Origin: Tricholomella constricta
Lineage: Eukaryota; Basidiomycota; Agaricomycetes; Agaricales; Lyophyllaceae
Direction of reading: 5' to 3'
Assembly (NCBI GenBank): GCA_013368375.1
Contig: JAACJP010000011.1
Location: 806,001-870,000 of the forward strand
DNA: 64,000 bases
The position numbers and the translations under genes are program-made. Each line of letters begins with the position of its first letter. The stretch's first letter is position 1. A model generated the notes under the pieces. That model was not told where the DNA came from. It was given only the letters and a program-made list of their open reading frames with translations, and searched no databases. Positions 17,349 to 36,255 of this stretch are shown here, in pieces.

Positions 17349-17531
17349 TGTAGCGACCGTGACTACTTGGCACGGATACCCTCTCCGCTTTACCGTCTTA
17401 CTAAGCTCTCCTATCCTCAGTATTATATATAAACCAGAACTATGTGATTAGAGACCAGTTTCCCGAATACTAGAACTTACACCTGTTCTTTCGCGAGACT
17501 ACCCCCAAATCCAGTGCAGCGTAACCGTGAC
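17349..17531 (+). repeat. 5' LTR, 3' end missing
   Basis: Same as the 201 bp 3' LTR except that the last ~18 bases (ending CGCTACA) are missing: after ACCGTGAC the sequence jumps straight into pol. Contains a TATA-like TATTATATATAAA. Confidence 0.9.
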
Positions 17532-20500
17532 TTGCTACGCGGCTTCCTTGGGGCTGCTGGGTACCTGGCCGACGATATTGATCGCGTCAGAGTACCTATG
17601 GGTATACTCCATGGACTTACGGGGGACACTGTACCCTTTCGTTGGGAATATACGCACCAGCGGGCATTCGAAGATATCAAGCGCCTGGCTACTTTGTGCC
17701 GCGATCACCACCGGAAGGCGCTCCAGTACGGTCCTGAGGCGCCACCTGTGAACATCGTGACCGACGGTTGCGTTACGGGAGTGGCAGGTGTCGTAAGCCA
17801 AGGTGCTGACTGGCGAACAGCTGAAGTCGCCGCGTTCTACTCCGCCAAGTTGAATTCTGCTCAGCAGAATTACCCCGTGCACGAGATCGAGATGCTTGCG
17901 GGCGTTGAGACTATGCTGCGCCACCGGGATATCCTACAGGGTGTTCGGTTCAAGTGGTTTACCGACCATAAGGGACTGATTCACTTACTGCAGCAGAAGA
18001 ACCTGTCCGGGAGGCAGGCCCGGTGGTTGGAGAAGATCTCCGAATTTGATTTTGAGGTGGTGTATGTGCCCGGATCGGAGAACATTCTCTCTGATGCGTT
18101 GTCGCGCCTGTACTCTAACGACGGGCCTGGCACCGTACGAGCGCGTAGTGAGTACACCTACCACGATGTCGTTGATAACGACTCCCTAACCCAGCACCTG
18201 GTGTCGATGCCGGTGCTGGTGGGGCTGGAGGGCGAGAGTTTGGCCCTCCCCACGCCTGCTGCCCCCGAAGCAACCGTTGTCCCGACGCCTGAGCCCAGCA
18301 CGGTGCACGGGGCTCCCTCGGAGCCAACTAGAGGGGCGCGCAAGCGCCCCGCGGTTCCGTCTGCTGAGACGGGGCGGCCGGAAACTTCGCGAGAGTTTGC
18401 TGCTCGTATGTCCCGCAGTTTCGTGCTGAGAGGCCCTAAGCAACGAAAGGAGGGCGAGGGTGCTGAACCCGCTCCACCCAAGCTGACGATTAGGCTGCCT
18501 GCACGGCGAACGCCCGTCAACAACGCAGAAGTAACGTTTGACGAACAGATTTCTGAACGATCCAAAACTCTCCGTGAGTTAGTGACAAAAGTAAGCCCCG
18601 TTACACTCGACGAATTGATGAACGGAGGGCGAGAGCCCGTCGATTTGCTAAAGAGTGTGCGGGGAAATTACCATAAGGACGCGGTATTCGCTAAGGTGTT
18701 GGAAGCGCCACGCGAGTATAAGAATTTCGAGGTTACGACTGACGGCCTCGTCTACCTCAAAATCAATGATCGTAAGGCCCTCTGCATACCCGCTGTTAAG
18801 GTTAACGGCCGAGCCATCCGAGAGATGGTCATATCTGAGGCCCATTCACTCTTAGCACACCTTGGGCCACGCAAAACACTCACGTACCTTCGAGACCAAG
18901 TATGGTGGAAGGACCTTAGTCGAGACGTCTACGCCTTCTGCGAGACGTGCACGACCTGTAGCCGATCGAAGCCTACCAACCACAAGCCCTACGGCCTGCT
19001 GAATCCCCTGCCGGTTCCCACAGAACCTTGGGACGCGATTGGAATCGATTTTGTAGGGCCGCTGCCCGAGTCGAAGGACCGAGACGCTTCTTACGATGCA
19101 ATTACCGTTGTCATAGACCTGTTGACCGGAATGGTGCACCTAGTGCCAAGCCGGACTAACTATACCGCGCGGAACGTCGCGGAGTTGATATTCTCTGAAG
19201 TGTACAAACTGCACGGGCTACCAAAGGCCATAGTGAGCGACCGAGACTCACTGTTCACTAGTATATTTTGGACGCACCTTCACGCCCTCGTAGGGACACA
19301 ACTGAAGATGTCTAGTGCGTATCACCCAGAGACGGACGGCTCAACTGAGCGTGCAAATCGGACCATCGTACAAATGATCCGGCAATGTGTAAGCCCGACG
19401 CAAAAAGACTGGGTATCAAAGCTTCCTGCTATCGAATTCGCCATTAATTCAGCACGGTCGGAATCGACGGGCTACTCACCCTTCTTCTTGAACTCAGGGC
19501 GCTTGCCCCGCCCTCTGGTGTGGGACTCTGCCCCTTCGACTGAGTATCCGGGTGTCCGCGTGTTCGCCCAGCGTTTGAAGTCCGCGATCATGGGCGCTCA
19601 TGATAGCATCCTAGCTGCCCGAGTTAAACAGACTCGAGGAGCCAACCGAAAGCGTCAGCTGGCCCCCTTCAAGGAAGGGGATATGGCCTACGTGTCCTCG
19701 AAGAACTTGACGTTTCCAAAGGGTCTCGCACGTAAGCTGATTCCCAAATTTGTTGGTCCCTATTTACTTGTCAAGGACTTTGGCAACAACTCCTTCCGAG
19801 TTCAACTGCCAGCGACTATGCTACAAAGAGGTATCCATGATGTGTTCCACGCTTCACTCTTGAGAATTCATCGACCGAACGATGACCGACTCTTCCCTGG
19901 GAGGTTGTACGAGCCCCTCCTCGATGCTGGTGAGCAAGATTCCCATTGGGCTGCTGACAAGATATTGGCACACTCCGGATCGAAGGACAACGTGATTTTC
20001 GAGGTCCTCTGGAAGGCGGGAGATCGTTCTTGGCTCTCGTATCCACAAGCTGAAGAATTGAATTTGATACAGCCGTACCTGGAGGCTTCAGGGGTTGAGA
20101 CCGTAGCGGAACTCCCCCCGGGTAATGGTGAGCCGCCCGAAGACGATCCTCAGGTCTTTCTTGGCGGCACTTACCCCTTTCCGAGTACTTATAGCCCCCC
20201 TTCGTCATCCCCCATTCCCCAAACGCTACCCCAGCTTCGTCTAGCGTCCATTGCGCCACACCACCCTTCGTCACCATCCCTTCCTTCGCCATCGTTCAAG
20301 ATGACGGGCACCCAGGAGCGCCCCGACCAGCATTACCTGATTCCCAAGGAGATCACCTACGTGGCCCCCTGGTTCCATTTCGCCACACCTGAAAGCCATG
20401 ATCTCGAAAAGCCGCTAACCGTCCACTTCGAAACTTTAAACGCTCTCACCGAATTCAACAATAACATTCGGGATGTCCCCGCCAACTCCACCACCTGGAC

Positions 20501-21092
20501 CCCCCCAGCTGGCTACGACGAAGTGGCGGTCCTCTGGAACGGATACCGCTCACGCAATCCTTGCCGCTTCACCCGTTGGGACGCCGAGCTCAAACAGTGG
20601 GACTTCGCGACGAAGCCCTCGATTCCCCTTCCCCCCAGCACCTTCTCTCGCCCCTACTACGACCCACGCTACGAGGCGTTGTTCCAGTTCGATTTAATCG
20701 ACGAATCCGGCGAGCTCGACGGCTCCCTCTGGAAGTCCCTCACGCAGGCCGTCCTTCGCCCCCATGTGCAGGCGACTCAGAACAAGCGCCGCCGAGAAGA
20801 GCAAAGGACTCAAAAGAAGAAGCAGCAGCGCCGCCAGGCTGAGGCGCTACCATCCACCTCTCACTTCGACTCTACCTCCCCGCCGCCGGCCAAGAAGCCT
20901 CGTGATCGCGCTCCCGACGCCTCAGGCTCCGGATTAGGCCCCGGAGCGCGCGCTGGTGTGCCTCTGCCCCTTCAAAAGGCTCGCGAGGCCGCTCGCAAAG
21001 ATAAACACCTGCCCCCGGGTGATCCTATGGAGTTGACGGAGTACACGAGCGACCAGGAGGCTGCCTCGTCTGGAGCCGTCGCCAAAGAATGA
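17514..21092 (+). CDS. Truncated gypsy pol: RT connection, RNase H, integrase, C-terminal extension
   Basis: A single 1192-codon frame entering from the truncated LTR without an ATG; the first internal ATG is 17598. It opens in the RT C-terminal region (DLLRGFLGAAGYLADDIDRV). RNase H follows, with VTDGCVTG (D near residue 84), EIEMLAG, FTDHKG and SDALSR. The integrase has an HHCC finger (HSLLAHLG ... FCETCTTC) and an intact catalytic triad: D in GIDFVGPLP (~512), D in IVSDRDSLF (~576), E in TDGSTERAN (~612). A chromo-like segment (VIFEVLWKAGDRSWLSYP) follows. An unusual ~300-residue Pro/Ser-rich then basic extension ends the protein (TQKKKQQRRQAE). Integrase may still be active but reverse transcription could only be supplied in trans. 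Confidence 0.9.
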   Translation: MQRNRDLLRGFLGAAGYLADDIDRVRVPMGILHGLTGDTVPFRWEYTHQRAFEDIKRLATLCRDHHRKALQYGPEAPPVNIVTDGCVTGVAGVVSQGADWRTAEVAAFYSAKLNSAQQNYPVHEIEMLAGVETMLRHRDILQGVRFKWFTDHKGLIHLLQQKNLSGRQARWLEKISEFDFEVVYVPGSENILSDALSRLYSNDGPGTVRARSEYTYHDVVDNDSLTQHLVSMPVLVGLEGESLALPTPAAPEATVVPTPEPSTVHGAPSEPTRGARKRPAVPSAETGRPETSREFAARMSRSFVLRGPKQRKEGEGAEPAPPKLTIRLPARRTPVNNAEVTFDEQISERSKTLRELVTKVSPVTLDELMNGGREPVDLLKSVRGNYHKDAVFAKVLEAPREYKNFEVTTDGLVYLKINDRKALCIPAVKVNGRAIREMVISEAHSLLAHLGPRKTLTYLRDQVWWKDLSRDVYAFCETCTTCSRSKPTNHKPYGLLNPLPVPTEPWDAIGIDFVGPLPESKDRDASYDAITVVIDLLTGMVHLVPSRTNYTARNVAELIFSEVYKLHGLPKAIVSDRDSLFTSIFWTHLHALVGTQLKMSSAYHPETDGSTERANRTIVQMIRQCVSPTQKDWVSKLPAIEFAINSARSESTGYSPFFLNSGRLPRPLVWDSAPSTEYPGVRVFAQRLKSAIMGAHDSILAARVKQTRGANRKRQLAPFKEGDMAYVSSKNLTFPKGLARKLIPKFVGPYLLVKDFGNNSFRVQLPATMLQRGIHDVFHASLLRIHRPNDDRLFPGRLYEPLLDAGEQDSHWAADKILAHSGSKDNVIFEVLWKAGDRSWLSYPQAEELNLIQPYLEASGVETVAELPPGNGEPPEDDPQVFLGGTYPFPSTYSPPSSSPIPQTLPQLRLASIAPHHPSSPSLPSPSFKMTGTQERPDQHYLIPKEITYVAPWFHFATPESHDLEKPLTVHFETLNALTEFNNNIRDVPANSTTWTPPAGYDEVAVLWNGYRSRNPCRFTRWDAELKQWDFATKPSIPLPPSTFSRPYYDPRYEALFQFDLIDESGELDGSLWKSLTQAVLRPHVQATQNKRRREEQRTQKKKQQRRQAEALPSTSHFDSTSPPPAKKPRDRAPDASGSGLGPGARAGVPLPLQKAREAARKDKHLPPGDPMELTEYTSDQEAASSGAVAKE

Positions 21093-21588: not shown

Positions 21589-23785
21589 CTAAAATGCAAT
21601 TTCATGCGAATGGTGGTCTGAGTACTTATTGACGTAAAATAATTTATAGGAATTTAAAGAGTCTGTATGTGTGAATGTCCACGGGAGAAAAGAGGAACCC
21701 GGAACTCCAATCAAGTGCGCACCACGAAGAATTGAGTCGGTGTGAATGACGGACACAAGCCGACGGCCCCTGGCATCATGGTCAGGCTCAACCATCCAAA
21801 GTCCAGTGTCAGCACAAGGAGCGTCGCCGTACGTCGAGAACCATTGCACCAGGGCGCAGGGGTAGGTGATGCCCCCGGTTTTGAACCAGAAAAAAAGGTT
21901 GACACGTGCAACATGAAGCCCGCGGAATCCATCGAGATCAGGGTCCTTCTCGATGAAGATACAATCGAATCGGCCGGGCCCGCGTTGCCATGATGGGGAT
22001 GCGCGAATGCGTTCGCGATGCATGCCTCCAATCCCGGAAAGATCGCTTGGGGCATGGTATGTCGATACGGCGGAGTGGACGACCGTGATCCTGAGGTTGG
22101 GGCTGATCTCCGGACAGGCATCGAGGTCGACGTCCATTCCGAAATCTTCGGAGTCGGGGTGGAGCTGGTCGTAGAGGTAGCGGCGGATGTATTCTGAAAG
22201 CTTGGGTTGTCGGAGATAGATTGAAAGTGCATCGAGTGTTTTTGGGTAGTTTTTGGCTGTAGGTGTCGTAAGCTTCGGAACAATATAATAATTGGGCACT
22301 TGCCTGGGTACTTTGCGAGCTTGACATCCCCGAGTGATGTCATTCCCGGATCAGCCTCTTCATCTGCACCATCATCACCTGGAGGTAGAGGTGGCAGAAT
22401 GACACTGGCAGCTAAGCATGGTCCAATTAACATCCCTCGGGCGATGAAATCGACGCGCGCAGCAGCTAGTTTGTCGAGTCGCTGATTGGTCAGTAGCATC
22501 TGGCCGAGGGGCTGGTTGCGGCTCGAGCGCCTCCAAGGTTCCTTGACGGCTTTGATGTGCTTCGACTCAGTGATCAACGAGCACAGGCCATTTGGAGCGC
22601 CGAACTGCTGTATCAGGCGGCGGTAGTGAATGAGGGAATGTTGACGTGGTAGCGAGAAGTTCTCGCGAATGCCGTGGTTTCGAAAAATTTCGCGTTCGTG
22701 GTGGAACCGTTCGACTGCGTATCGATCGCGAGGAGTGTATTTTCGTCGATTTGAGACCGCCGGACCAGGTAACAGAATTCGAGGAAGGCGCTGATGGCTC
22801 GGACCACCTGCGAGGGGACATGGCCAGCAATTGCTGGCAGATACACCTTCTCATTTACTTGTAAATCAATAATCTTCGAAGATATCCTGAGTAGTAAATT
22901 TACCTTCATCAAAGCCTTGGAGTCGTCCCCCGTCCATTGCTTAAAACCGCGACCCTCGGGAAAGCGTCGAAGTCCGGGAAAGGAGGGTGCTGCAGCGATG
23001 CTGAGGTCTGACTATGAGTAATTGGATCTGAAACAATGGCTAAGAACCTACCGTCGATCAATGTCTGTGAGAATTTTTTTGGCTTCGGCAGCTGGGTGAA
23101 CAGACTCGATAAATTCGGTGACCCAAGACACGAGGTGATCTTTGAATGTGCCCTTGATTATTTGATGCAGAAGATCCGGTGCCAGCAGCTCGTGGATATC
23201 GGCACGAGGAAATTGAGACGTAAAAGGCTAGTTTAGATATGAGTCTACATCGAAAGCCAATTACGAGCCATGGCACATACTATGAGGTCCCCGACAATGC
23301 CATAACCCTCCCAGAGTATTGTTAAGTCGTCCTCGTAAGCTTCGCGGAGGAGTCCAGTATGTACATGCGATCGTGGGATGGCAACCGGGTCACCATCGAG
23401 GTCAGTAGGCAGCGCCGTGCATCTGATTTGCGATTTAAATGAACGAATTCTAATAAACAAATTGTTAACTTACTTTGCACACCAACCGGAGACCACGCAA
23501 GCAAGTAATACCTGCTCGGGATAGTCTGCAATGTATGGCCCCAGTCCATAGATCGCGCGTCGAAAATGACCATCAGCGCAACGCGTGATACGGGGCTTCG
23601 TCATCCAGGGTTTGAGTGATGACAGTATCCTAGTCAGTGATATGTGAAAAAGTTGCCGTCGAAATTTTCGGAACTCGATGTCATCATGGAATTGCTTGTC
23701 GGCTACGCATACGGCACATGTATCAATGATAGCATACCAACAGAAAAATAGATAACTTACTTTTGGGGATTGCAAGGAAACCAAC
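21589..23785 (-). pseudogene. Plavaka transposase, C-terminal two-thirds (split gene)
   Basis: Several in-phase exons on the minus strand. The first codons after the KDZ insertion read LVGFLAIPKSDKQFHDD (58 nt intron inside), then CADGHFRRAIYGLGPYIADY, TALPTDLDGDPVAIPRSHVH, ADIHELLAPDLLHQIIKGTF, VPSQVVRAISAFLEFCYLVR, SITESKHIKAVKEPWRRSSR, LGQMLLTNQRLDKLAAARVD, a MHRERIRASPSW block and finally LFYVNKYSDHHSHEIAF. These blocks are the usual order in basidiomycete Plavaka transposases (CMC-related DDE enzymes). The N-terminal part continues at 36256. Without the KDZ insertion the transposase would read through. Confidence 0.88.
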
Positions 23786-23792
23786 GAGGGAA
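23786..23792. repeat. Target-site duplication of the KDZ element, left copy
   Basis: GAGGGAA, repeated at 36249-36255. Joining the flanks through one copy restores the Plavaka reading frame (NALSLVGFLAIPK). Confidence 0.88.
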
Positions 23793-23814
23793 CACATATA
23801 TACACACATACACT

Positions 23815-24240
23815 TAAGCCTACCTTCATTTTGTAAGAACGTATGGCTGAAGTCTAGCCTACTTTTCGTAGAGCTTCGAGACGGTCTTCAGTTTAATTTT
23901 TTTGTCCAGCACACCTCAATCCTAACAAGTCTACCATACTGAACCGTGTAGTGTACTTCAAATAGATTCAAGTCAGCTTGAAAAAGTTCAATATATTTCA
24001 AGCGTACCTCAATCCTAACGAGTCTACCATACCAAACCGTGTAGCGTACTTCAAATAGATTCAAGTCAGCTTGAAAAAGTTATCTTTACAGCGTACCTCA
24101 ATCCTAACGAGTCTACTGTCAAACCGTGTAGCGTACTTCAAAAAGCCTAAGTTTCAACCCTAAGGTACAGCGAGTCTACCGTGCTCGCGAGTCTACCGTG
24201 CCCGAGCCGTCGCGTCAGCCTATGAAAAGTCTACCCAGCC
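23815..24240. repeat. Left subterminal repeat array of the KDZ element
   Basis: Three imperfect ~80-base units (from about 23915, 24005 and 24091) built around CTCAATCCTAACGAGTCTAC and AAACCGTGTAGCGTACTTCA, followed by shorter copies of CGAGTCTACCGTG. At least seven AGTCTA words point the same way. Located between the element end and the transposase stop; probably cis sites for the transposase. Confidence 0.75.
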
Positions 24241-24253
24241 TATACGGGCTATG

Positions 24254-27200
24254 TCAATAAAATAAGATTTCGACATATGACGAGCGTACCTTGAGTGCTT
24301 TCTCAAACACGGCTTGACAGTCTGTCGCCAGTCGCCTATACATGGCAGCCTGTCGGTGGCAGTACGCCGCTCGCCCGCCTTTCGTCGCCATCCCAAGCTC
24401 ACCCCAGACGTCTGCCATCCTCGAAAACGACGCCACGCTGCGTCGAAACTCCTCTTGCAGAATCTCCTTCTCCTCTCGTGATCTGTCACGCGCTGCTCGA
24501 TCGCGAAACCACTTAACCCGATCCACTGCCATCCATCAGCATTGAGCAAGGTGAACCATCTGAGAACACTTACTTTCGAGGCTCCATTCCGACTCCTCTT
24601 CTTGGGTCATGCCAATACGTCGCCCAACATGCCAGAACCACGGGTCTTGTTTCTTTGCATCACCCAACTTGTGGCGTTCCGTCACGTTCTTCTGCCACAG
24701 CTGTTCCTTGAGCAAAGGCTGCAATGCCTTGTCATTGGGGTCGAGGCCGAGCGCGAGGAGTTTTTTGTACACGCGTTGGTACCGCTCCATTGCTGAGGTC
24801 TTTTGTGCTTGAAGGGTGAGAAGATATTGCTGAGCGCGCGTGCTGGGACGTTGGCCGTGAACGAAGCTTTGCTTGAATTGGAGGTTAGCGTTGACGGTCT
24901 TGATAGCTAAGCGGACCTCAGCGAGGGCGTCATGGGCCTGACCTTCGCGCAGTTGGTATTCGACCTGAGCCAAGGACTCCAACCCTATGGCGCTGCGTCG
25001 AGTCACGGGAAAGTCGGAAGGTAGCAACAGAGGGATGTCCTCAGCTGCAATGGCTTCTGTCGAATTCACCTCGCTTAAGAGAGCAGGAAACATCGTCAGC
25101 TGCTCTTGACGCCAACTCGCAAGCTCTTGAGAAAGCCTGGCACGTGAGCTTGACGTCTGAGCATCGGGTTTGGACTTGGAGGATAACTGGACCCTGTAAC
25201 ATACTACGTTAGATATGCAGACGTGCGCAGAATGAGTATACGCACTGTTTCTCCTCCAGCTGTAGCGCTCTGTTTAAGAATGATGCAAGGCCGGCTCCAT
25301 TATCGTTACTACTGGAGGCAGCCAATTCAGCGCTTGCTAACGTTTGATACACCCGGTTGAATGACGGCGGCCCTTCGAGATGGTCAAGATCTTGAAGACA
25401 TGGATTTTCGTGTCGACTTACCTCCTTCCAGCTGTACCTCATATACACTCTGCACAACTCCTTTCGAGATGATCTTCGGCCTTGTATCCATTGTCTCCCA
25501 CCGTGCGATTAGATCCGGCGCATGCATATTAGTCAATGCAGCAAAATCATCCTCCCGCGTTTGAAGGGTCTTGACGCACGCGGTATACATACGATGAAGT
25601 GTTGCGGCTGTATATCTAGATCAGATATATTCTTCACCGATGGATTAAATACTGACCGATCTGATGAACTTTCGTCCAGTTCCAATACCCGAAGAAATCG
25701 TCGAGGCTGTCGTGGCGATGACCATCGTTCTGCTCCTTGGTGCTCCCTGCAGATTGGTTTTGTTCCGCCCATCCACCTTCGATGTTCTCGCCCCAAGTCT
25801 CGCCGGAATACTTCAAGTAGTTGAAGGCCCATAAGAGCATGCAAATCAGAACATGGTTCACGACGTGCATCTTGGGAATTGCACCCCGAATCTTCCCGAG
25901 CAGAGGGACGACGTCTGGAAACCATTTCATAAAACGTTTCTCGAGATTAATACAATATTGACACCTAAAGCTAATGAGTTTCAAGTGATTCTTCCCTAAG
26001 TAAGATAAACGAACCATATATCATAGCTAATCATGATCCAGCGCAGGTGGCTGGCCTCGGCAATCGCGTGTGCCAACGCATAGTCGGTGTTCGCGAACCT
26101 GCAAGGCAGGATCAGTGAAAGTTCAAATGTGTAACACGAGCAGCTTACGCTTCGCCTTTGGTGAGGTCCACCGTTCCCTGTGGCATGTAACAGCCATGGC
26201 GGGCACATTGGAAGGCAACGACGCCGCTCACCACGGCATTCTTGAATTTCGCAATGTTCTGCATCTTTCCTGCTTTGAGGTGAGGGCAGGTCGGTTCCTG
26301 CGATACACCATGAGACGACGGCCACGATAGCTGAGGAGAAACGTACCTCTTCCGGATGAATGCCAACCCTTTTAAGATAGCCCTTGAATGGCTCGGTCGG
26401 TACGAAATAGCCGTTGCCGTTGTTCAGAGCCGTGTCATCCGGATCATCATTTTTATGCTTGCGCTGGAGTCGAAAGTTTCCATCGGTGGATAGGAATAGG
26501 GTGTACTTGTGGCTATATCTAGTCAGCGATAAGGAATGTGCGTTGCAAAAAATCACTCACGTCTCATCGTCACGGGCAGCCCGGATCACAGCGTTGTCTA
26601 CGTTGAAGCCGACCTCAGGGCAAGCTGGACATCGGACCGTGAGTGAGTTTGCGCGTCGGTGGGTAAGGATGTTGTCGATGCTGTGGGCCTGGCCACTCCG
26701 TCTGACAATAGCGAGGTGGCTCCATACACGTGAGACCTGATTAAACTCGCGATACCGATCCTGTGCATCGTAGAAGTCAGCCATTGTAGTACGAATACAG
26801 TAAAATACATACCGGCACGTCCTGAGGGAAAGCATTGTTCGTTAGGCTTTGAAGGGTGCCAAAATAGTCGTAGGCAGACTTCTTCGACGTCAAGTTGCTT
26901 ATGTGAAAGTGCTTGAGTACCGAGAACGTGAAGGCGGTTTCCGGTCGCTTGATAGTTGCAGGGAAGTACCGGGCACGTACCAGTTGCTCTGCATCGGACA
27001 AAGCCTCACAATGGCAATATTTGATTTGCATGCGATGAACACCGTTGATATGGACGACGACTGTAGGGCGGCCGCTTAGGGTGGGCAGTGCGTTGGGGCA
27101 CGGCCTGCCAAAGTGTCCTAACGTCATAACGAAGCCCAATTCAGAAAGTGATACGCGCTGGAAGAAACTGCCTGTCCATCGCTGGAGGAAGTGGAACGGT

Positions 27201-27689
27201 TGACTTTCATGTGCTACGATGATGCACTCCTGACATAGGAGATTGCACTGAGAGCATTCTGTGCATCGAAAAGCACCAGCAGCCGCGCCGCAGGGACAGT
27301 CCTGTCCGATACGAGGATGGGACTCGGTCGATAAAATCGCGTCTTGTAGAATATCGAAGCTTTTCGAAAAAGTTTCCATCATTACTGACGCGCCCTGCGT
27401 TCCATCAGCAAACCTTCTGCCCCAGTGATGAAGATACACGTACTTGTTTCCTAACTGGTTTTACGTCGGGTTCGGCGGTGGTTGAAGTGGGGTTGTAGGA
27501 CGGAGTAGGCATAGAACATGTGGGAGGTGGTGCTGATACGCGTCGACACTTTGCCGTGGTTTCGTAGAATGTGCGCGTTGTCGTGCTCCCGGCTGCAAAG
27601 ACTGCCCTGTTCAATTCAATGTCATCCTCCTTGTCGGACTCGCTGTCGTAACGGCCAACGACTCCTCGACGCTTGTGAGTACGGGACAT
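24254..27689 (-). CDS. KDZ (Kyakuja-Dileera-Zisupton) transposase with CxC2 cysteine cluster
   Basis: About ten exons from ATG at 27689 (MSRTHKRRGVVGRYDSESDK). The second exon holds the CxC2 zinc cluster: CPCG, CTECSQC, CQEC, then HFLQRWTGSFFQRVSL. The catalytic KDZ region follows: VRCPACPEVGFNVD, TDGNFRLQRKHKNDDPDD, CPHLKAGKMQNIAKFKN, then SYDIWCQYCINLEKRF with a probable catalytic Asp (intron inside, in phase), IPKMHVVNHVLICMLLWAFN, GENIEGGWAEQNQSAGSTKE and NDGHRHDSLDDFFGYWNW. The C-terminal blocks are LREGQAHDALAEVRLAIKT and DPWFWHVGRRIGM, then MDRVKWFRDRAARDR. I saw no internal stop that introns do not remove, so it may be functional. Excision and insertion of the whole 12 kb unit would be its job. 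Confidence 0.9.
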
Positions 27690-27764
27690 TGGACAGGAAG
27701 GGGCTAGCTACAGAACGAGTGGTGCGTGCGCGTTAGTGTGAAATAAAATCTCTCTGGCCAGCAC

Positions 27765-28094
27765 GAGAACAATAATGGAGGCAGCATTGTACGGCAATGG
27801 CTCCTCGACCTCGATCGGGGAGGAAAGGACAATACAATAGCAGCAGAATGAAGTGGCGTATGCGCGGTGACACGCGGGACAAGAGAACAAGGCACGTTCT
27901 GGCCACAACGAGAACAAGAGTAGAGGCAGCATTCTACGGGACCTCACGATCGCTGCCAGAGCAAATCGTGTGGGCGATCGAAGATCTGACCCCAACTCAT
28001 CAACGAGAACAATAGCACAGCAGTCTACGGGACCTCACGATCGCTGCCAGAGCAGATCGTGTGGGCGATCGAAGATCTGACCCGAACTCATGAA
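27765..28094. promoter_or_regulatory. Palindromic direct repeats upstream of the KDZ transposase
   Basis: Two nearly identical 73-base units (about 27928-28000 and 28022-28094) each contain the inverted repeat CACGATC-N11-GATCGTG followed by GGGCGATCGAAGATCTGAC. A diverged relative of the leading part (GAACAATAATGGAGGCAGCA) lies at 27765-27805. They sit in the 5' region of the transposase gene and just past the 3' end of cargo gene A. Spaced palindromes in a promoter suggest sites for a dimeric protein, possibly the transposase itself. Confidence 0.6.
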
Positions 28095-28224
28095 GGCCAC
28101 TGTCCGAAGCAAAAGGTTGTATGATTCGTTATCTCTTTACCTATGTGAGATAACGTTGCGACTGTCAAAAATATATACGTGCGCTTTAGCAGTGTGCGCT
28201 TGGATAGTGTAAATTGTGCATGTT

Positions 28225-30435
28225 CTACAGTGACCACAATTGGTCAAATGGTATTATCCGCGTCATGTCGTAAGAGATGTTGGGCGCCGGATTCAAGTGC
28301 TCGAGAAGGGGCGGCGGGGGCTCAAAGCCGGGCACGTCATGAGAAAGACGACGAGGGACGATAGGCGCGCGGCGGAAGTGATTGAAAAAGGTCTGCGTAT
28401 AGTACTTTGCGACGGCTTCCTCCAAACTCTGAATTTCATCGGCCTTCCATCGCCAGCTGTCGACGTGGAGGATGCCTGGCTGTTTCCCGGGCCAAGTCCT
28501 CATGAGCCGCTGAAGTTCCAACAAGTAGCGACAGCGTTCGTCCTCGTTGTAGCTCGCGATGCCGTGATTTGCTTCAGACAGCGGCGCGGCGAGGAGTTGT
28601 CCTCCGGGAAAGCAATCGGCGACACGTTGTTGTTCTTGCCCAAGATCGAAGTCGGCGGCCCCACGACGGATGAGAATTTGCAACGCGAGGAGCTCCTGGC
28701 GAAAATTAAGCTCCGCCAGCTCCCACAAGATCTCCTCGAAGTCCTTGTCCTGAAGATCCCCGAATGGTTTGCCCTGCCAAGTTTCGTTACCATGGGCAAC
28801 TTCGCCGATTGAGGTGTCCTCGGCGCTCAAGCAGTTCTGGAGAAAGTCAGACAATAGTTCCAGGCGCGTCGCGCTCTTCGTCTGACGATCCCCTCTCTTC
28901 CTATCAGCGCCGGACGAGCTATGTTGCAGCCAGTCGAGCCCAAGCAAATCTCTCCAAGCCTTCCCAGACATCGGCCGCGCATTCGAATCATTGACACTGA
29001 GGCGATGGATGAGAACCGCGCGATAACGAAGCCAGGCACGGAGGGTCGATGCACGCCGGTCTCGTTTCTCGTAGGCAATGAACGAGGCGGGTTCCGGGAA
29101 TGCGTATCCGAAATCGGAGCCCAGAACATCTTTGTCGACGAAGTTGCTGGGCGATTGATCGACGCTGTGGAGCGCATCACGCCATGCCGGGATCGCGGGA
29201 GGAAGGATGGCGTCCGGCAGATCTTCGAACTTGCTACGACCCTGCGGCTCGTAGATGGCCTTGTTTTTCTTGCGCTGGGCGTCTATGATGTCCTTGTCAG
29301 TTGTAGATAAGTAAATCATTGAGATAAAAACTTACAGGGGCTGTACCGTTGCGTGCGAGCCTTACGATCTGTCATCGGCACATCGGGAGGTGGAACCACG
29401 GGTCGCTCCATCCGGTGGGCGTTGAACGGGTTGCAGGTTGTGTGGAAATATTTAGTGAAGTGCCGGATTGCCGTATATTTGGCCAGTTGCGTCGCAGACC
29501 CGCGATAGACGACCTTGTAGGAGGGCTTTGATGCAGCGAGCGGAATGAAACCTTCGGCGCGCTTTGCAGTGACCACTTCGTTGATGCACAGCGTAAGGAC
29601 ATCCACACGGTGGTGAACAAGGAATACAGGTATTTTTGCCCTAAATAATTCCTCGCAGACGCCGATGTTGGTAGTGAATGCCCCCATTACCGGTGCGACT
29701 GGCGTCGCTGCATCCACCTCTAAACCCCCACTAATACGCGGTTGGTAGATGTCCCGCCAGTCGAGCGCAGCTTGTAGCTCGGAGTACAGACGCTGAACCT
29801 CGCGTACGGCGAGTCGTGCACGACTGAATGTCGTCGGTAAGGAGGTGAGTCGATCAAGGAAGGAATTGAGGATGGGAGGGATCTCCCGAGCTGGGGGGTA
29901 ATTGTCGTAGACGGCACTCCGCGCTTTTTCCATCAGCAGAATGCAGGGTTTTCGAAGGCGGCTGAGCATATCATGAGAGAAGCGCCCGATCGGATAAAAT
30001 AGACGGTCCTCGCACACAAACTCGGATTCTGCAGGGAGCCACCACATTATTACCACGGGGTCACTGCGATCGCGGGGTGGATAACGAATGACTGAAAGGT
30101 ATGGGAGATCCGCGATGTAAGGCTGCGGCCACATAAGTGGGTCGTCATCTCCATAGCGTAGATCCTCGCGCAGGAACACCGGGCGATCTCCCCCCAGAGG
30201 CGGATCCCGTAGTCTCTTCGAATTCGGCGAAGTCACTACATATTCCCCCTCCCCAACGATGGCAGCGACTAAGCCATCGGTCGGCCGAATATCTGACGAA
30301 CTGTGAACACAATTATTAAACATAGAGGGAAAAGAACTTACTAGCTGGGTTGAACTGAAGTTTGAGACGCAGGAGTTGTTCAGGGTTCGCCAACAGGTCT
30401 TTCGACCCTGGGGGGTAGAGTTCCTCGCTCGACAT
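28225..30435 (-). CDS. KDZ cargo gene A: large protein of unknown function
   Basis: Three exons in phase: 30342-30435 (MSSEELYPPGSKDLLANPEQ), 29336-30291 and 28225-29282, with introns of 50 and 53 nt, giving about 700 residues. Visible blocks: VVIMWWLPAESEFV, then GRFSHDMLSRLRKP, TNIGVCEELFRAKIPVFLVH, YKVVYRGSATQLAKYTAIRH, ILPPAIPAWRDALHSVDQSP, FEEILWELAELNFRQELLAL, DCFPGGQLLAAPLSEANHGI and FFNHFRRAPIVPRRLSH. No membrane segment or known catalytic motif. From memory the block order resembles a lineage-expanded agaricomycete family of unknown function; I have no name for it. Its position inside a bounded transposon suggests such copies travel with KDZ elements. Confidence 0.75.
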
Positions 30436-30446
30436 CACGAATCGCC

Positions 30447-30990
30447 GCGTTGGTTAAGAGTACCACAGATAGATATCAGCCGACGTCACGTCGAGCCGAA
30501 AGAGAATACCAAAGGTATATCTCAAAAGTGGGAAGTGGGCTGAAAGAACCGCGGGCTATGAAGGTTCGACAGTAAGTAGTTACATAAATGAAGAAAACTT
30601 ACTGTTGATCGTGATTTCGAACTTTGGAGCTCAAGGTGCAACGTGGGTGGATAAAGAGTCCCCAGGCTATCACGAAACGCCGCGTTGGTTAAAGAGCACC
30701 ACAGAGAGAAATCAGCCGACGTCACGTCGAGCCGAAAGAGAATACCAAAGGTATATCTCAAACTGCAATCTGGGTAAAAGGAACGTCCGCAGGCTGTGAA
30801 GATTAGTTGACAGTAAGTAGTTACATAGATGAGAAAAACTTACCGTTGATCGTGGTTTCGAACTTTAAAGCTCAAGTTAAATGAAAGGAGTGTATACGAA
30901 AGTGTAAAGACGTAATGTAAAGGAGTGCTTGCAATCAGCCGACGTCACGTCGAGCTGAACGAGAATACCAAAGGTATATCTCGGTGGCAG
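30447..30990. repeat. Upstream repeat of cargo gene A with ACGTCACGT palindrome
   Basis: A block occurs three times, at about 30475, 30713 and 30936: ATCAGCCGACGTCACGTCGA, followed by GAATACCAAAGGTATATCTC. Each has a CRE-like palindrome (GACGTCACGTC) and an ATACC/GGTAT inverted repeat. The first two units are ~238 bases apart and also share AGTAAGTAGTTACATA and CTTAC-GTTGATCGTG. The array covers the promoter of cargo gene A and may itself be former exon copies of it. Confidence 0.75.
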
Positions 30991-31199
30991 AGGAGATCGG
31001 GCCAAGCAGCTGCAGCGTTGAGGATGCAGCGAATGATGCTGAAGGGAGACGTGTCGTCGACTCTGCACTTGCGCGCTGAGTTTGAAAAATATTTTTCCGC
31101 GCTTGGGCCCAGTGGCTGAGCAAGCGTGTGACCTTTCGGCAATGCCCGGGCGGACGCCAACCACTTTTTGACTTCCCATTCTCTTGAACTTCATCACCA

Positions 31200-31621
31200 T
31201 CGGGGCAGACGTTCGTCTCCCACCTGCTCGACCTGGCGTCGGCAGTGCTAGTGAATTCTCTCCTCCTCTCGTGTAGATCGTCCGCCTCCATGGATCAAGC
31301 ACCCCCGCCTTTTCCCATCAACATCGGGCCAGACGTTCGTCTCCCGCCTGCTCGACTTGGCGTCGGCAGTGAATCCTCCCTCCTCCTCTCGTGTAGATCG
31401 TCCGCCTCCATGGATCAAGCACCCCCGCCTTTTCCCGTCAACATCGGGACAGACGTTCGTCTCCCGCCTGCTCGACTTGGCGTCGGCAGTGAATCCTCCC
31501 TCCTCCTCTCATGTAGATCGTCCGCCTCCATGGATCAAGCACCCCCGCCTTTTCCCATCAACATCGGGCCAGACGTTCGTCTCCCGCCTGTTCGACTTGG
31601 TGTCGGCAGTGATTACTTTTC
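31200..31621 (+). repeat. 120 bp tandem repeat, three and a half copies
   Basis: Exact period 120 (units starting at 31262, 31382 and 31502, preceded by a partial one). Because 120 is a multiple of three the array is open on the plus strand and encodes a repeated 40-residue unit (ASMDQAPPPFPINIG). Substitutions between units include amino acid changes and no start codon context stands out, so I treat it as a minisatellite rather than a gene. Confidence 0.85.
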
Positions 31622-31964
31622 CTCACTCACTTCGTCAACCACAAGCAGCTTTATTTCTCGGGCCGCCCCTGGATTTTTTTTCAGCCTGGCGCTCACCTTG
31701 GGCACTGGATTCCGATGTGCCGCCGACGTGCTGAATTCGCTATTGTACTAATTTTTACTTCTATCATCGCTATAATCCTTTATTTTTATTTCTATGTTAT
31801 TTAGCCCATCGTCTATATCTAGAGCGCTTGTACCTACAATTACGATATATTGTTCTGCTTTGACTGGCCCAGACTGCCTCGCTTTGGCCTTCCAAAGCCT
31901 CTCAAGGAACTTTAAAGGGCGCACGATCGGTGAGGACTATAACGTCGACATCTTATTATTATTA

Positions 31965-33066
31965 ATGCCTCGCACTGCTTCTTCTACGACAGGACGTCGT
32001 CAAGCTGCCCCCTACTCTCAACGATTACCTGTCACCCATCGCTTTGGACCCTTCACCGACGCCGACCCAGCACTCCATGGCCTGAATAAATCTGCTGCCA
32101 ACAAAGTCAACGAAGAGCGGATCACGAAAGCTATCGAATTCCTCGCGGCGCCGTACAACGAGCAGCGCCGAGTCCACGGTTGGGTCTACCGAACGCCACA
32201 AGTGTGCACGGGAAAATCAGCCTCGGGGAAGGGAGACGTCTTGGAGCACTCAAACATCGGGCGGTGGTTCCAGATGGTGGTAAGTGGCATTTTCTAGTGC
32301 GTCTAACATTTCGCCTGATTTGATCGACATGTAGAAGAAGAAGAATGCGCCCTGGACGTTCACTTGGCTAACGCATACCTCGTTAGACGCGGAGATCCTC
32401 CATGATGCCACCGAGTTGGCAGCATGGTTCAATATTCGTGAGGAGCTCCAACCTCAGCCCCGGCGCACAAACCGAACAGGGCCCGTCCAGCCACTTTGGA
32501 CCTCATCAGTACCCAGTCGGGCTCCACCTTCTCCGCAGGCGGCTAGCTGGAGTTTGTCTCCACCGACGAGTCCTACGTATGACGACTTTCCCTCGTCGTC
32601 TGCCACTCTTGTTGCATCTTCCCCCATTCGGCCCGCACAACGTTCGAACAACACTGTCACTGGTTATGCTCTAAATGATAGGGACTTTACATGTGGTGTG
32701 CGACTCTTTATCTGGAAATCGGTCAGTTCGAATAATCATCTGGTCGATTTGTTACTGAGCTGTCTACAGGATGCCCACAGCCACGTTGAAATAGCTGTCT
32801 TTCCTCGACGTGGCGATCGCAGCGTCCATCTGCTGGACTTCAAGGTCGAGCTCGGAGTGTACGGGGTCGAGCTCGGGAATACACTGGAACTCTACTCAGG
32901 AGGATGGCCCGAATGGCTCGAGCATCGTTGGGCGGAGCCCCTCGCAGTTGATTTCGCGGGGCAAGCTTTTTTTCTGAAATACGCTACCGTAGTTTCCCCT
33001 CCCTGCTTCGATACAATATTCCATCTTTACAATACCATTCGCAAGGGCAAAGCACGGGCCCACTAA
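31965..33066 (+). CDS. KDZ cargo gene B: unknown protein
   Basis: Begins at ATG 31965 (MPRTASSTTGRRQAAPYSQR). A 55 nt intron (GTAAGT at 32281 to TAG at 32335) joins NIGRWFQMV to KKKNAPWTFTWLTHTSLD. One more short intron is likely around 32721-32769, within the segment LFIWKSVSSNNHLVDLLLS. The frame ends TIRKGKARAH at 33066, about 340 residues. The N-terminus is basic and Ser/Thr-rich; the middle is Pro/Ser-rich linker (VPSRAPPSPQAASW); the C-terminus is a compact acidic/aromatic region (GGWPEWLEHRWAEPLAV). Family not recognised. It is head-to-tail with cargo gene C, 400 bases away. Confidence 0.6.
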
Positions 33067-33465
33067 TTACAAATTCTCCTTACTTACAATATGTTCTTCA
33101 CAAGGAAGGCTTATCCTTCTATTGTCTTTCTCCAACCTTAATTCGAGCGACGGCACAATTTGACCCTCGACGATACCTTGGCCTTGTCTCCCCCCCCCGG
33201 GACGGAACGAGCTACTCAATGTACGGCTTTTATCTACCTTTGCACTAAACTAATCAATAATCATCGACATTAGGCTAAAGCTGGAAATGCTGCTTTGCCC
33301 GCCGCCACAGCTTTGACCTGAGGATGGCCCTACCTTAGGATGGCCCTCCAAGCGTGGACCTCTCCACGGTTGTTGTTCGAAATGCCACAGTCAAAGCGGA
33401 CTCGGGGCTAAAAAGACAGCTCTCGCAATTTCGCAGGCTTTCGCACTCCCCTCGCTATACCTGTC

Positions 33466-35744
33466 ATGGAAAATCCCCCTGACCCTGCCAACTCTGGCCT
33501 TCCGCTCGACCCGCCTACGTCTACGGCAGCAGCTCCACGTCCCAATCAAGGAGCTTTCAGCAAGGAGGAGAAAGCCCTCCTGCTCTCTCACCTTCCACAG
33601 TATCAAGAGTTTGTTGACAAGCTCGCTCAGAAAGCCACTGGCCCTCGAGGGACTGGGCAGGTGAAGGGCGACAAGGGGGACTGGGTCCTCCGTCTCGTAT
33701 ATCCTCTCTTCATCCAGCAATTCAACTCCACTGGCCCTGACGGTCCAAATCTCGAATCACTTAAACATGTAAGCATTATTTCTCCGTCAGGCATTCCGTG
33801 TTTAATTTTGTTATTCAGAAACTGAAGAAATGGTTCGTCAACAACACGAAGACTAATGTTGAGGTGCCGGCACCCTCGACGTCCAGTAAAGTCCCACGTG
33901 CGACAAGCGCCGTCGACCTATTCGCGAAAACTAAGCAAGCTGATATTCGAGACATGATCAACAAGGAGCGCACCGAAACTGGTCAATCTACCAAAGAAAG
34001 CAACCTTACTCTCCACCGGAAGTACAAGCACGAATTGTATAATGAACTTGACGACAAGACCCGTGCTGAATTTGAAGAGGAAGCAGCAATCTTGAAGGAG
34101 AATCTGAAGCAACCCCCGGGCGCTGATCATATATATGCGTGAGTTTCTCGACATATGTTTTGATTGATGCACGGCTAATTTCCTCTACAGTCAACAGAAG
34201 TCTCTACTGCCAACGGCCACGGAGGCACTGCGTGGCATGTGCGGCTGGAACTGGGGAGGGCATGGTGAGGTCATGTTCTTCCTACAAGGCGCCTATCGCA
34301 ACAAGGCGGGTGACCTCAAGACATTCAAGTACGTCAACTACTAGCCATCTTCTCTCACATTCTAATGTCTTGATAGTGGGACCGTATCCAACAATGCTCA
34401 ATCGGCGACTTTCGCTGATCAATGTGCCAATTTCAAAGACTTCCGCAACGAGTTTCGACGGTTCGCAGAGGGCGCATTGCCAGGTATTTCTTTTCCTGCC
34501 GTCATTGTTGTGCGCCGGGACTGATGGACCCTTTATGACAGTCAAGCGTCCCGAAGCGATCACTCCCATAGAGTCCGCAGTGAAGCCAGTCAAGCTCACC
34601 ATCATCTTGAACGAGGATGGATACCCCATCCTGCCATCCTTAGACCCCGAGAGTATCCCTGTCGCCAGCTGTCGCCACCTTCTGGCGGAATACATCGAAA
34701 TGGCCTGGAGTAAGTCGATGATGACCACGAGCCAATCTATTTTACTAATGAGCTTCGTTTATTGCAGAAGTCTCGAACTCAACTACAGTCCCTTGGGATG
34801 TCCTTGGTACATCGAAGCGGGACTCTGTCGGACTCACCCATTGCAACACGCTTGCCGATTTTCCGAGCCTCAATCCCAAAGTAATGAAGGCAACGGACGC
34901 TCTTCGATTGTACACGGCATTTTTCGATGCCCAAAACCGATCCCACAACATTTTACAGTTCTCAAAGCCGATGTCGCTGTCAGACGACGACTTTGACGAT
35001 GATAACAATGACAACGATGATGACAATGAGAATATTGAGACATTGCCCTCCCAACAACCCGCTCCTGCTGCCATCACACATTCCCCTCCTCTCGCCAATT
35101 TCTCACTGCCAATACTTCGTGACAGCGCCCCTGACTCAGTGTCGACTCCTGTTCTCGCCACCCCCCCGGATACAGGTGACGGCGGAGGCGAGAACACCAC
35201 CACGACCACTACTACGTCCGCCCACGCCCACGTCCCGACGATCACAAATAGCGGCGGAGACACCGATACCGCTGTGAACAGACTACAAGACACCATTTCT
35301 ACACCCGAGGCCGATTCCAACGCCGAAACCTTGGAGTCTTCCGATAACACTGGAAGCGCCTTGGGGTCGGAGCGTGGAGGAAGACGTGGGCGCGGTGGAA
35401 AACGCGGCGGTGGTAGGCGTGGTGGGAAGGGTGTCGCCGCTGCTTTGAGGGGCCCGGTGGCCATAGTGAACACTAACTCTGCGCCAGTTTTCCAGCCCTC
35501 GGCAGTCTACACGCCAGCTGCAGTCGAATCTCTACCCACAGCCGTTGCCGCCGCACCCTTGACGGGTACTCCAACATTGCCCACTCCTGCATCAACTACC
35601 ACTCAGCTCGAAGAAGAGCCTCGCCGCAGCAGCCGGAAGCGCAAGGCCCCCTCTACTCGGGATGTCTCGGACACGCCCATCGCGAAACAGGCTCCGGCTA
35701 AGCGTCGCAACTTATCAGAGAGATGGCACTACGTGGCGGCTTGA
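33466..35744 (+). CDS. KDZ cargo gene C: unknown protein with basic Gly/Arg tail
   Basis: Six exons in phase from MENPPDPANSG: 33466-33768, 33819-34138, then from 34191 onward, with introns of 48-60 nt. About 580 residues. The N-terminal region (KGDWVLRLVYPLFIQQF, LKKWFVNNTK) has Trp spacing reminiscent of Myb/MADF-type DNA-binding folds but is not a clear match. Middle blocks are YKHELYNELDDKTRAEFEEE, GMCGWNWGGHGEVMFFLQGA, CANFKDFRNEFRRFAEGALP and IILNEDGYPILPSLDP. The last third is disordered: an Asp/Asn run, then GRRGRGGKRGGGRRGGKG (AT-hook or RGG-like), then a nuclear-localisation-like RRSSRKRKAP. Probably nuclear and nucleic-acid binding (inference). It resembles a multicopy agaricomycete family of unknown role. 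Confidence 0.75.
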
Positions 35745-35749
35745 AAAGA

Positions 35750-36248
35750 TGTATGTTATATTCTGTTGAAAGTTTTGGATCGTTAACTAACTTCACAGGC
35801 TGCTTCGGCTGATTACGCTTGAAATGACTTGACAGAAGGATTTTTCAGATGATAGGTTGACTTATTTATCAGGCTGGATACGCCGACTAGATAGCTTTAA
35901 CTTGTGGAATGATTGTCTTGGCTAGACTGCTTACTTGTTGTTTCATAGGCTACGTTGACTTACGGACTTGCAGTTTGAATCTCTACATTTACTTTACACT
36001 TCATAGGCTCCCTGTATTGCTTATACGCTGCTACTTGAGAAGTCTATCGTGCACAAGATGCTCCGTACACTAGTCTCTTCCCCGACTTATTGGTGAGTAG
36101 GCTTCGCTAGACTGGCTTAGGCTGTCTAGACTTGCTGACTATGTGGGCCAGCTTCAGGTTTACAAATGCCCTTGAACTTAAGGTGTCGGCTGAGTCTAGT
36201 AAATGTCAACTTCTAGGCATTGGCTGAGCGTACGAACTGAGGTCCCCG
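35750..36248. repeat. Right subterminal region of the KDZ element
   Basis: Non-coding. TAGACT/AGTCTA words recur (GGCTAGACTGCTT, CGCTAGACTGGCTT, GTCTAGACTTGC, GAAGTCTATCG, GAGTCTAGTAA), mostly inverted relative to the left end (AGTCTAGCC). Ends with GGTCCCCG before the right target duplication. Confidence 0.6.
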
Positions 36249-36255
36249 GAGGGAA
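36249..36255. repeat. Target-site duplication of the KDZ element, right copy
   Basis: GAGGGAA, matches 23786-23792. An eighth base would mismatch (C left, G right). Confidence 0.88.

What the first reader, a model, noticed from the sequence alone, without database searches (positions are those of the whole stretch)
23793..36248. A bounded 12.46 kb KDZ transposon with three co-travelling genes of unknown function
Seen directly: the Plavaka transposase is interrupted codon-precisely, with GAGGGAA on both sides, and everything between is therefore one insertion. It contains a seemingly intact CxC2-KDZ transposase and three further multi-exon genes (A minus, B and C plus), all with conserved-looking splice structure. 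Established: KDZ elements in basidiomycetes are known for lineage expansions and for carrying non-transposase genes such as TET/JBP dioxygenases. Here none of the cargo shows TET/JBP motifs. Inference: genes A, B and C form a cargo or accessory module (DNA binding, regulation or host interaction) of a KDZ subfamily not described as such.
Basis: partly seen in the sequence, partly recalled or inferred. Interest (0 to 1): 0.93.

Follow-up and report, generated by a model that had tools for sequence, protein, structure and literature searches.

The report
Fungal transposon with own DNA-bending helper
A 12.5-kb jumping gene present in over a dozen places of a genome that is likely a mushroom's carries, besides its transposase, three genes that stay together and are kept by selection, one of which likely makes a DNA-bending protein that would help the transposase pair the element's two unlike ends.

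Summary
It is one of 16 two-ended copies; 13 have an exact 7-bp duplication. The ends lack terminal inverted repeats (5'-CGCATATATACAC...GAGGTCCCCG-3') but carry an inverted array of AGYCTA hexamers. Transposase, A, B and C occur in the same order and orientation in 16 of 16 copies; where measured, all four show purifying selection between copies (median dN/dS 0.15, 0.31, 0.28, 0.25), and locus tags of other fungi place A, B or C relatives side by side. They look like core genes of a KDZ element, not passengers. C has a predicted HMG-box-like fold (below sequence cut-offs); A has a confident model without a known match; B is unidentified. None of 23 TET/JBP matches lies in these copies; 15 weak ones lie near other KDZ genes. 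Best reading: a Kyakuja-like KDZ lineage with its own accessory proteins, C likely an architectural DNA-bending partner for pairing dissimilar ends (inferred). Anti-silencing is the main rival.

The parts
23786..23792 (.). left copy of the 7-bp target-site duplication GAGGGAA
23793..36248 (.). the complete element, 12,456 bp, no terminal inverted repeat
   Evidence: ends shared by other copies; best 20-base match of the first 80 to the reversed last 80 bases is 11 of 20
23793..24292 (+). left subterminal array: 12 AGYCTA hexamers, all forward; includes a 93-bp tandem repeat at 23913-24142
24254..27689 (-). KDZ transposase gene, 985 aa, 11 exons, CxC2 and KDZ domains
28225..30435 (-). gene A, 702 aa, 3 exons; confident predicted fold (of a homologue) without a known match
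31192..31612 (+). 120-bp tandem repeat, 3.5 copies, between the divergent genes A and B
31965..33066 (+). gene B, 332 aa, 3 exons; no domain identified
33466..35744 (+). gene C, 670 aa, 6 exons; HMG-box-like domain and a low-complexity C-terminal part with Gly/Arg-rich and basic stretches
33894..34118 (+). predicted HMG-box-like domain of C (residues about 127-201)
   Evidence: position transferred by alignment from the modelled homologue P0026
35699..36248 (-). right subterminal array: 7 AGYCTA hexamers inverted, 2 forward
36249..36255 (.). right copy of the target-site duplication GAGGGAA
36438..37004 (-). upstream piece of the interrupted Plavaka transposase
   Evidence: Pfam Plavaka
23470..23785 (-). 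downstream piece of the interrupted Plavaka transposase
   Evidence: Pfam Plavaka; frame restored by the join

Best explanation
This is a KDZ DNA transposon without terminal inverted repeats whose transposase is accompanied in all 16 two-ended copies by three genes kept by selection, one of which (C) likely encodes an HMG-box protein that would bend the element's unlike ends so that the transposase can pair and cut them. Shown: exact ends, 7-bp duplication, empty sites, inverted AGYCTA arrays at both ends, constant four-gene order, purifying selection on the four genes among the copies compared. Predicted: HMG-box-like fold of C. Inferred: the AGYCTA arrays are binding sites of the transposase or of C; C supplies bending for synapsis; A and B are further subunits or regulators of the transposition complex. 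The element would cut itself out, pair its ends through the arrays and insert at staggered cuts of 7 bp with little sequence preference.
Confidence: 0.5

Rival explanations
1. A, B and C are anti-silencing or chromatin factors that protect the element from host methylation, doing the job that TET/JBP dioxygenases likely do in related KDZ elements; C would act on chromatin rather than on the transposon ends.
For: No TET/JBP match in the 16 copies, whereas 15 of 23 TET/JBP matches of the genome lie within 15 kb of another listed KDZ match (read by hand). Private transitions at CpG sites are 2.9 times as frequent per site as at other C/G sites (190 of 1402 against 172 of 3721) with equal transversion rates, as expected if the host methylates CpG in these copies. 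Kojima 2025 (PMC12730594; parts 1-3 of 7, passages and legends read) argues that TET likely helps transposons escape silencing.
Against: All 15 TET/JBP matches near KDZ are below Pfam's cut-off, and 0 of the 6 over it lie near a listed KDZ match, so the TET contrast is soft (this lowered these odds from 0.28). No enzyme domain found in A, B or C. CpG decay in C15 and C29 shows no complete protection. An HMG-box-like protein fits end bending at least as well.
Confidence: 0.25
2. The element is a fusion of two once separate units, a KDZ-A left arm and a B-C right arm, each with its own role, that still exchange by recombination.
For: Copy C27b is 98-99% identical to the window in six of seven 800-bp bins from about 31 kb on (90% in one), but 84-95% in the nine bins before; dS against the window is 0.29 in KDZ and 0.02 in B (Fisher p 2e-18). 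Left-end and right-end identity classes occur in several combinations (read by hand).
Against: Recombination between complete elements explains the same pattern; no complete arm with its own two ends was seen, though none was searched for; four genes together in 16 of 16 copies.
Confidence: 0.07
3. A, B and C are captured host genes carried as passengers.
For: They have introns and no domain over a Pfam cut-off.
Against: The A, B and C matches of the genome lie in this element family or its remnants; purifying selection; linked relatives in other genera.
Confidence: 0.03

Closest known systems
Kyakuja (KDZ) DNA transposons of Agaricomycetes, as described by Kojima 2025, PMC12730594
   Same: KDZ transposase; 7-bp duplication; no terminal inverted repeats
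   Different: described ends 5'-CA..TG-3', here 5'-CG..CG-3' in 14 of 16 copies and CA..CG in the window and C5 copies; the families described there carry a TET/JBP gene, here none but A, B and C; separate from 4 KDZ genes near weak TET/JBP matches in the same genome. Reference Kyakuja sequences could not be compared
Zisupton and Dileera (PMC12730594); KDZ1-3 of Cryptococcus neoformans (PMC12810828, passages read)
   Same: KDZ transposase, in KDZ1-3 with a CxC-type zinc cluster; KDZ1-3 are 9.2-11 kb long
   Different: 8-bp duplications (4-8 bp in KDZ2 and KDZ3); inverted repeats in Zisupton and KDZ1-3 (139-241 bp); accessory genes like A-C not seen in the passages read
RAG1/RAG2 with HMGB1 (V(D)J recombinase; PMC6941560, passages read)
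   Same: works-like comparison only: a transposase-derived recombinase, a second protein without transposase homology, and an HMG-box protein that bends the ends for synapsis
   Different: no homology claimed; HMGB1 is a host protein, C is encoded by the element
CACTA/En-Spm elements with subterminal repeats and the binding protein TNPA (recalled, no call)
   Same: arrays of short motifs near both ends, extra protein besides the transposase
   Different: CACTA has inverted terminal repeats, 3-bp duplications and an unrelated transposase

Membership tests
KDZ transposons | KDZ transposase domain (PF18758) over the curated cut-off | tested here: met
   176.9 bits, cut-off 26.6, profile 1-217 of 217
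KDZ transposons | CxC-type cysteine cluster upstream of the transposase domain | tested here: met
   CxC2 112.3 bits, cut-off 27
Kyakuja | 7-bp target-site duplication | tested here: met
   13 of 16 two-ended copies exact, 1 with 6 of 7, 2 none
Kyakuja | no terminal inverted repeats | tested here: met
   7 of the first 20 bases match, best 20-mer 11 of 20
Kyakuja | 5'-CA..TG-3' termini | tested here: not met
   CG..CG in 14 of 16 copies; CA..CG in the window and C5 copies
Kyakuja | transposase falls in the Kyakuja clade | not testable with these tools
   no named reference sequences were compared; the in-genome tree only separates this lineage from other KDZ genes
TET-bearing KDZ transposons | TET/JBP gene (PF12851) inside the element | tested here: not met
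   0 of 23 TET/JBP matches of the genome fall in the 16 copies
Zisupton / Dileera | 8-bp duplication and, for Zisupton, terminal inverted repeats | tested here: not met
   7 bp, none
HMG-box proteins (gene C) | sequence match over the curated Pfam cut-off | tested here: not met
   best 17.2 of 25.4 bits (HMG_box, P0028 segment) and 16.6 of 22.4 (HMG_box_2, window segment); 0 of 4 homologues
HMG-box proteins (gene C) | three-helix HMG fold | tested here: inconclusive

The most novel reading that the evidence does not exclude
The element carries a complete, self-supplied recombination complex for ends that do not match each other: a KDZ transposase, a large partner of unmatched fold (A), a third factor (B) and its own HMG-box DNA bender (C), arrived at independently of the RAG1-RAG2-HMGB1 machine; in this lineage the set takes the place of the TET/JBP gene of its relatives.
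Probability: 0.18. Interest if true: 0.85.

Novelty: new variant of a known kind. Interest (0 to 1): 0.6.

Why it matters
Eukaryotic cut-and-paste transposons usually need one or two proteins and inverted repeats (recalled). Here a KDZ lineage without inverted repeats keeps four genes together in each of 16 two-ended copies, under purifying selection where measured, and relatives of three of them sit side by side in other fungi. That makes a concrete question testable: what extra proteins a transposase needs when its two ends differ, and whether an element can bring its own DNA-bending factor. Other KDZ genes of the same genome, some with a weak TET/JBP match nearby, give a natural comparison.

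Tried and rejected
Rejected: two adjacent insertions instead of one (the two-ended copies share both outer borders and, in 13 of 16, a duplication across them). Not supported: A as a divergent TET/JBP dioxygenase (no Tet_JBP match of the genome lies in A, B or C; no PDB match of the A model; very divergent types are not excluded); A as a viral protein (no BFVD match at E <= 0.001).

Full report
Insertion. The sequence shows GAGGGAA at 23786-23792 and 36249-36255; between them lie 12,456 bp. The flanks joined read on in frame through the Plavaka transposase, whose Pfam profile is split 1-99 / 167-242 across the insertion. A 300-bp flank join matches five further places of the 44.1-Mb genome from base 1-3 to 300 at 77-82% identity, so uninterrupted Plavaka relatives exist; C49 and C18 may be one locus assembled twice.

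Family. Searching the own genome with the first 498 and last 509 bases gave 26 and 31 matches. Paired by contig, strand and distance they make 16 two-ended copies after merging duplicates with the same flanks (C117 and the start of C34 repeat C27:621-633k; C55 repeats C34:438-460k; C84 repeats C7). Unpaired ends remain at C18:163k, C2:2002k, C16:441k, C53 (right) and C16:674k, C16:717k, C29:346k, C41, C45 (left). Spans run from 12.3 to 34 kb, and one pair spans 102 kb. Duplications of 7 bp are exact in 13 (window, C17, C5, C38, C46, C14, C27:323k, C27:621k, C2:1831k, C7, C15, C2:2138k, C29), 6 of 7 in C34, absent in C27:198-223k and C11:8.7-110k, which may not be single insertions. Ends are 5'-CGCATATATACAC or close variants (CA for CG in the window and C5) and GAGGTCCCCG-3'. 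There is no inverted repeat. The copy at C17 differs at 4 of 1,998 and 4 of 2,009 compared bases and has another target site, so the family moved recently (inference).

Subterminal arrays. AGTCTA, picked as the most enriched hexamer, occurs 12 times in the outer 980 bp against 1.2 expected (0 of 2000 simulations as high). With AGYCTA, six of six fully fetched copies have 9-14 forward and no reverse hexamers at the left, 1-2 forward and 7-11 reverse at the right, and 3-7 in the 11 kb between. That these are protein binding sites is inference.

Genes. Models: KDZ 24254-27689 minus, A 28225-30435 minus, B 31965-33066 plus, C 33466-35744 plus. KDZ has the full KDZ profile and CxC2. In the own genome A gave 56, B 43 and C 98 exon matches (all candidates of the first look scored; C searched with its first 421 residues); they lie in the 16 copies, in their duplicates, or in remnants at C16:433-441k, C45:17-24k, C53:16-19k and C15:33k. 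All four genes have a match in 16 of 16 copies with the same order and orientation (read by hand; the KDZ search scored only 47 of 384 candidates). A match does not mean an intact gene.

Selection. Besides the window, nine copies in eleven pieces (C16 among them a remnant without a left end) were used where they covered the gene. Nei-Gojobori dN/dS, pairs with dS above 0.05: KDZ 0.15 (33 of 36 pairs, 0.12-0.36), A 0.31 (42 of 45, 0.20-0.52), B 0.28 (32 of 36, 0.20-0.41), C 0.25 (27 of 28, 0.18-0.40). Against: window versus C5 gives 1.63 in B, on six differences. Exonic indels of these copies are multiples of three in 72 of 81, non-exonic ones of the five whole copies in 79 of 331; one 662-base gap caused by the fetch border was left out. 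C of the C5 copy was left out because its span was too long. Some copies are broken: KDZ in C2a, C29, C27b, C15; A in C27b, C15; B in C27b.

Other species. Protein search: 25 relatives of A, 4 of C, 1 of B; the named ones are Agaricales (by recall) (A and C lists capped). Whether a KDZ gene lies there was not seen. The host is therefore likely a member of Agaricales, perhaps Lyophyllaceae (inference).

Relation to TET. Tet_JBP gave 23 matches, none in the 16 copies. 15 of 23 lie within 15 kb of a KDZ match listed (distances read by hand; the KDZ list was cut), but all 15 are below Pfam's cut-off, and 0 of the 6 over the cut-off lie near a listed KDZ match. In a tree of 17 KDZ domains the 8 sequences of this lineage form one side of a long branch (96/100), apart from 4 KDZ genes near weak TET matches; the rest of the backbone is unresolved. 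Private mutations in six aligned copies show CpG transitions 2.9 times as often per site as other C/G transitions, with equal transversions, which suggests CpG methylation by the host (inference). CpG is not depleted overall (observed/expected 0.97-1.05; window flanks 0.93).

Mosaic copies. C27b is 98-99% identical to the window in six of seven 800-bp bins from about 31 kb on (90% in one) and 84-95% before; dS is 0.29 in KDZ and 0.02 in B. Copies exchange arms, by recombination or gene conversion (inference).

Literature. Kojima 2025 (PMC12730594; parts 1-3 of 7, passages and figure legends read) describes TET-bearing Kyakuja families with 7-bp duplications, no inverted repeats and CA..TG ends. 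KDZ1-3 of Cryptococcus (PMC12810828, passages) have 139-241-bp inverted repeats and 8-bp or 4-8-bp duplications. In Pleurotus intact KDZ genes are preceded by CxC2 (PMC7641404, passages). HMGB1/2 bend the ends for RAG (PMC6941560, passages).

Verdict. A real, complete and recently mobile KDZ element of Kyakuja-like anatomy, not filed as Kyakuja because the terminal dinucleotides differ and no reference was compared. Its three extra genes look like core parts. The best mechanism, marked as inference, is that C bends and A/B assist the pairing of unlike ends; anti-silencing remains a serious rival.

Noticed in passing
window 17448-21092: Large open frame with reverse-transcriptase RNase H, integrase and Tf2-1-like SH3 domains: a Ty3-type LTR retrotransposon next to the Plavaka gene.
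   Followed up: no
window 31192-31612: 120-bp tandem repeat, 3.5 copies, in the space between the divergent genes A and B; could be a promoter or recombination spot.
   Followed up: no
C27:621336-633623 (L063, L064) against the window: Chimeric copy: right half nearly identical to the window, left half divergent; left-end and right-end classes occur in several combinations among copies.
   Followed up: partly
element termini, window 23793-23794 and 36247-36248: The left end is CG in 14 of 16 copies and the right end CG; CA..TG of described Kyakuja could be the product of CpG decay at both ends.
   Followed up: no
G000 C11:8712-110729: Outermost ends 102 kb apart, with gene A split between 13-15 kb and 90 kb and no matching duplication: nested insertions or rearrangement.
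   Followed up: no
G000 C31:506k, C11:67k, C20:115k, C20:296k, C20:356k, C7:678k, C16:650k, C18:197k, C1:827k, C35:78k: A different KDZ type (ten places with nearly equal scores, open 285-residue frame), apparently another recently active KDZ family.
   Followed up: partly
G000 C6:995k, C39:264k, C17:814k, C10:65k, C61:165k, C95:9k: The six TET/JBP matches over Pfam's cut-off are not near a listed KDZ match; their surroundings were not read.
   Followed up: no
proteins P0013-P0015, P0017, P0018, P0021, P0024; P0019, P0020: Gene A relatives are multicopy in Pluteus cervinus and have distant paralogues in Lyophyllum atratum, so the A family is broader than the B and C hits found.
   Followed up: no
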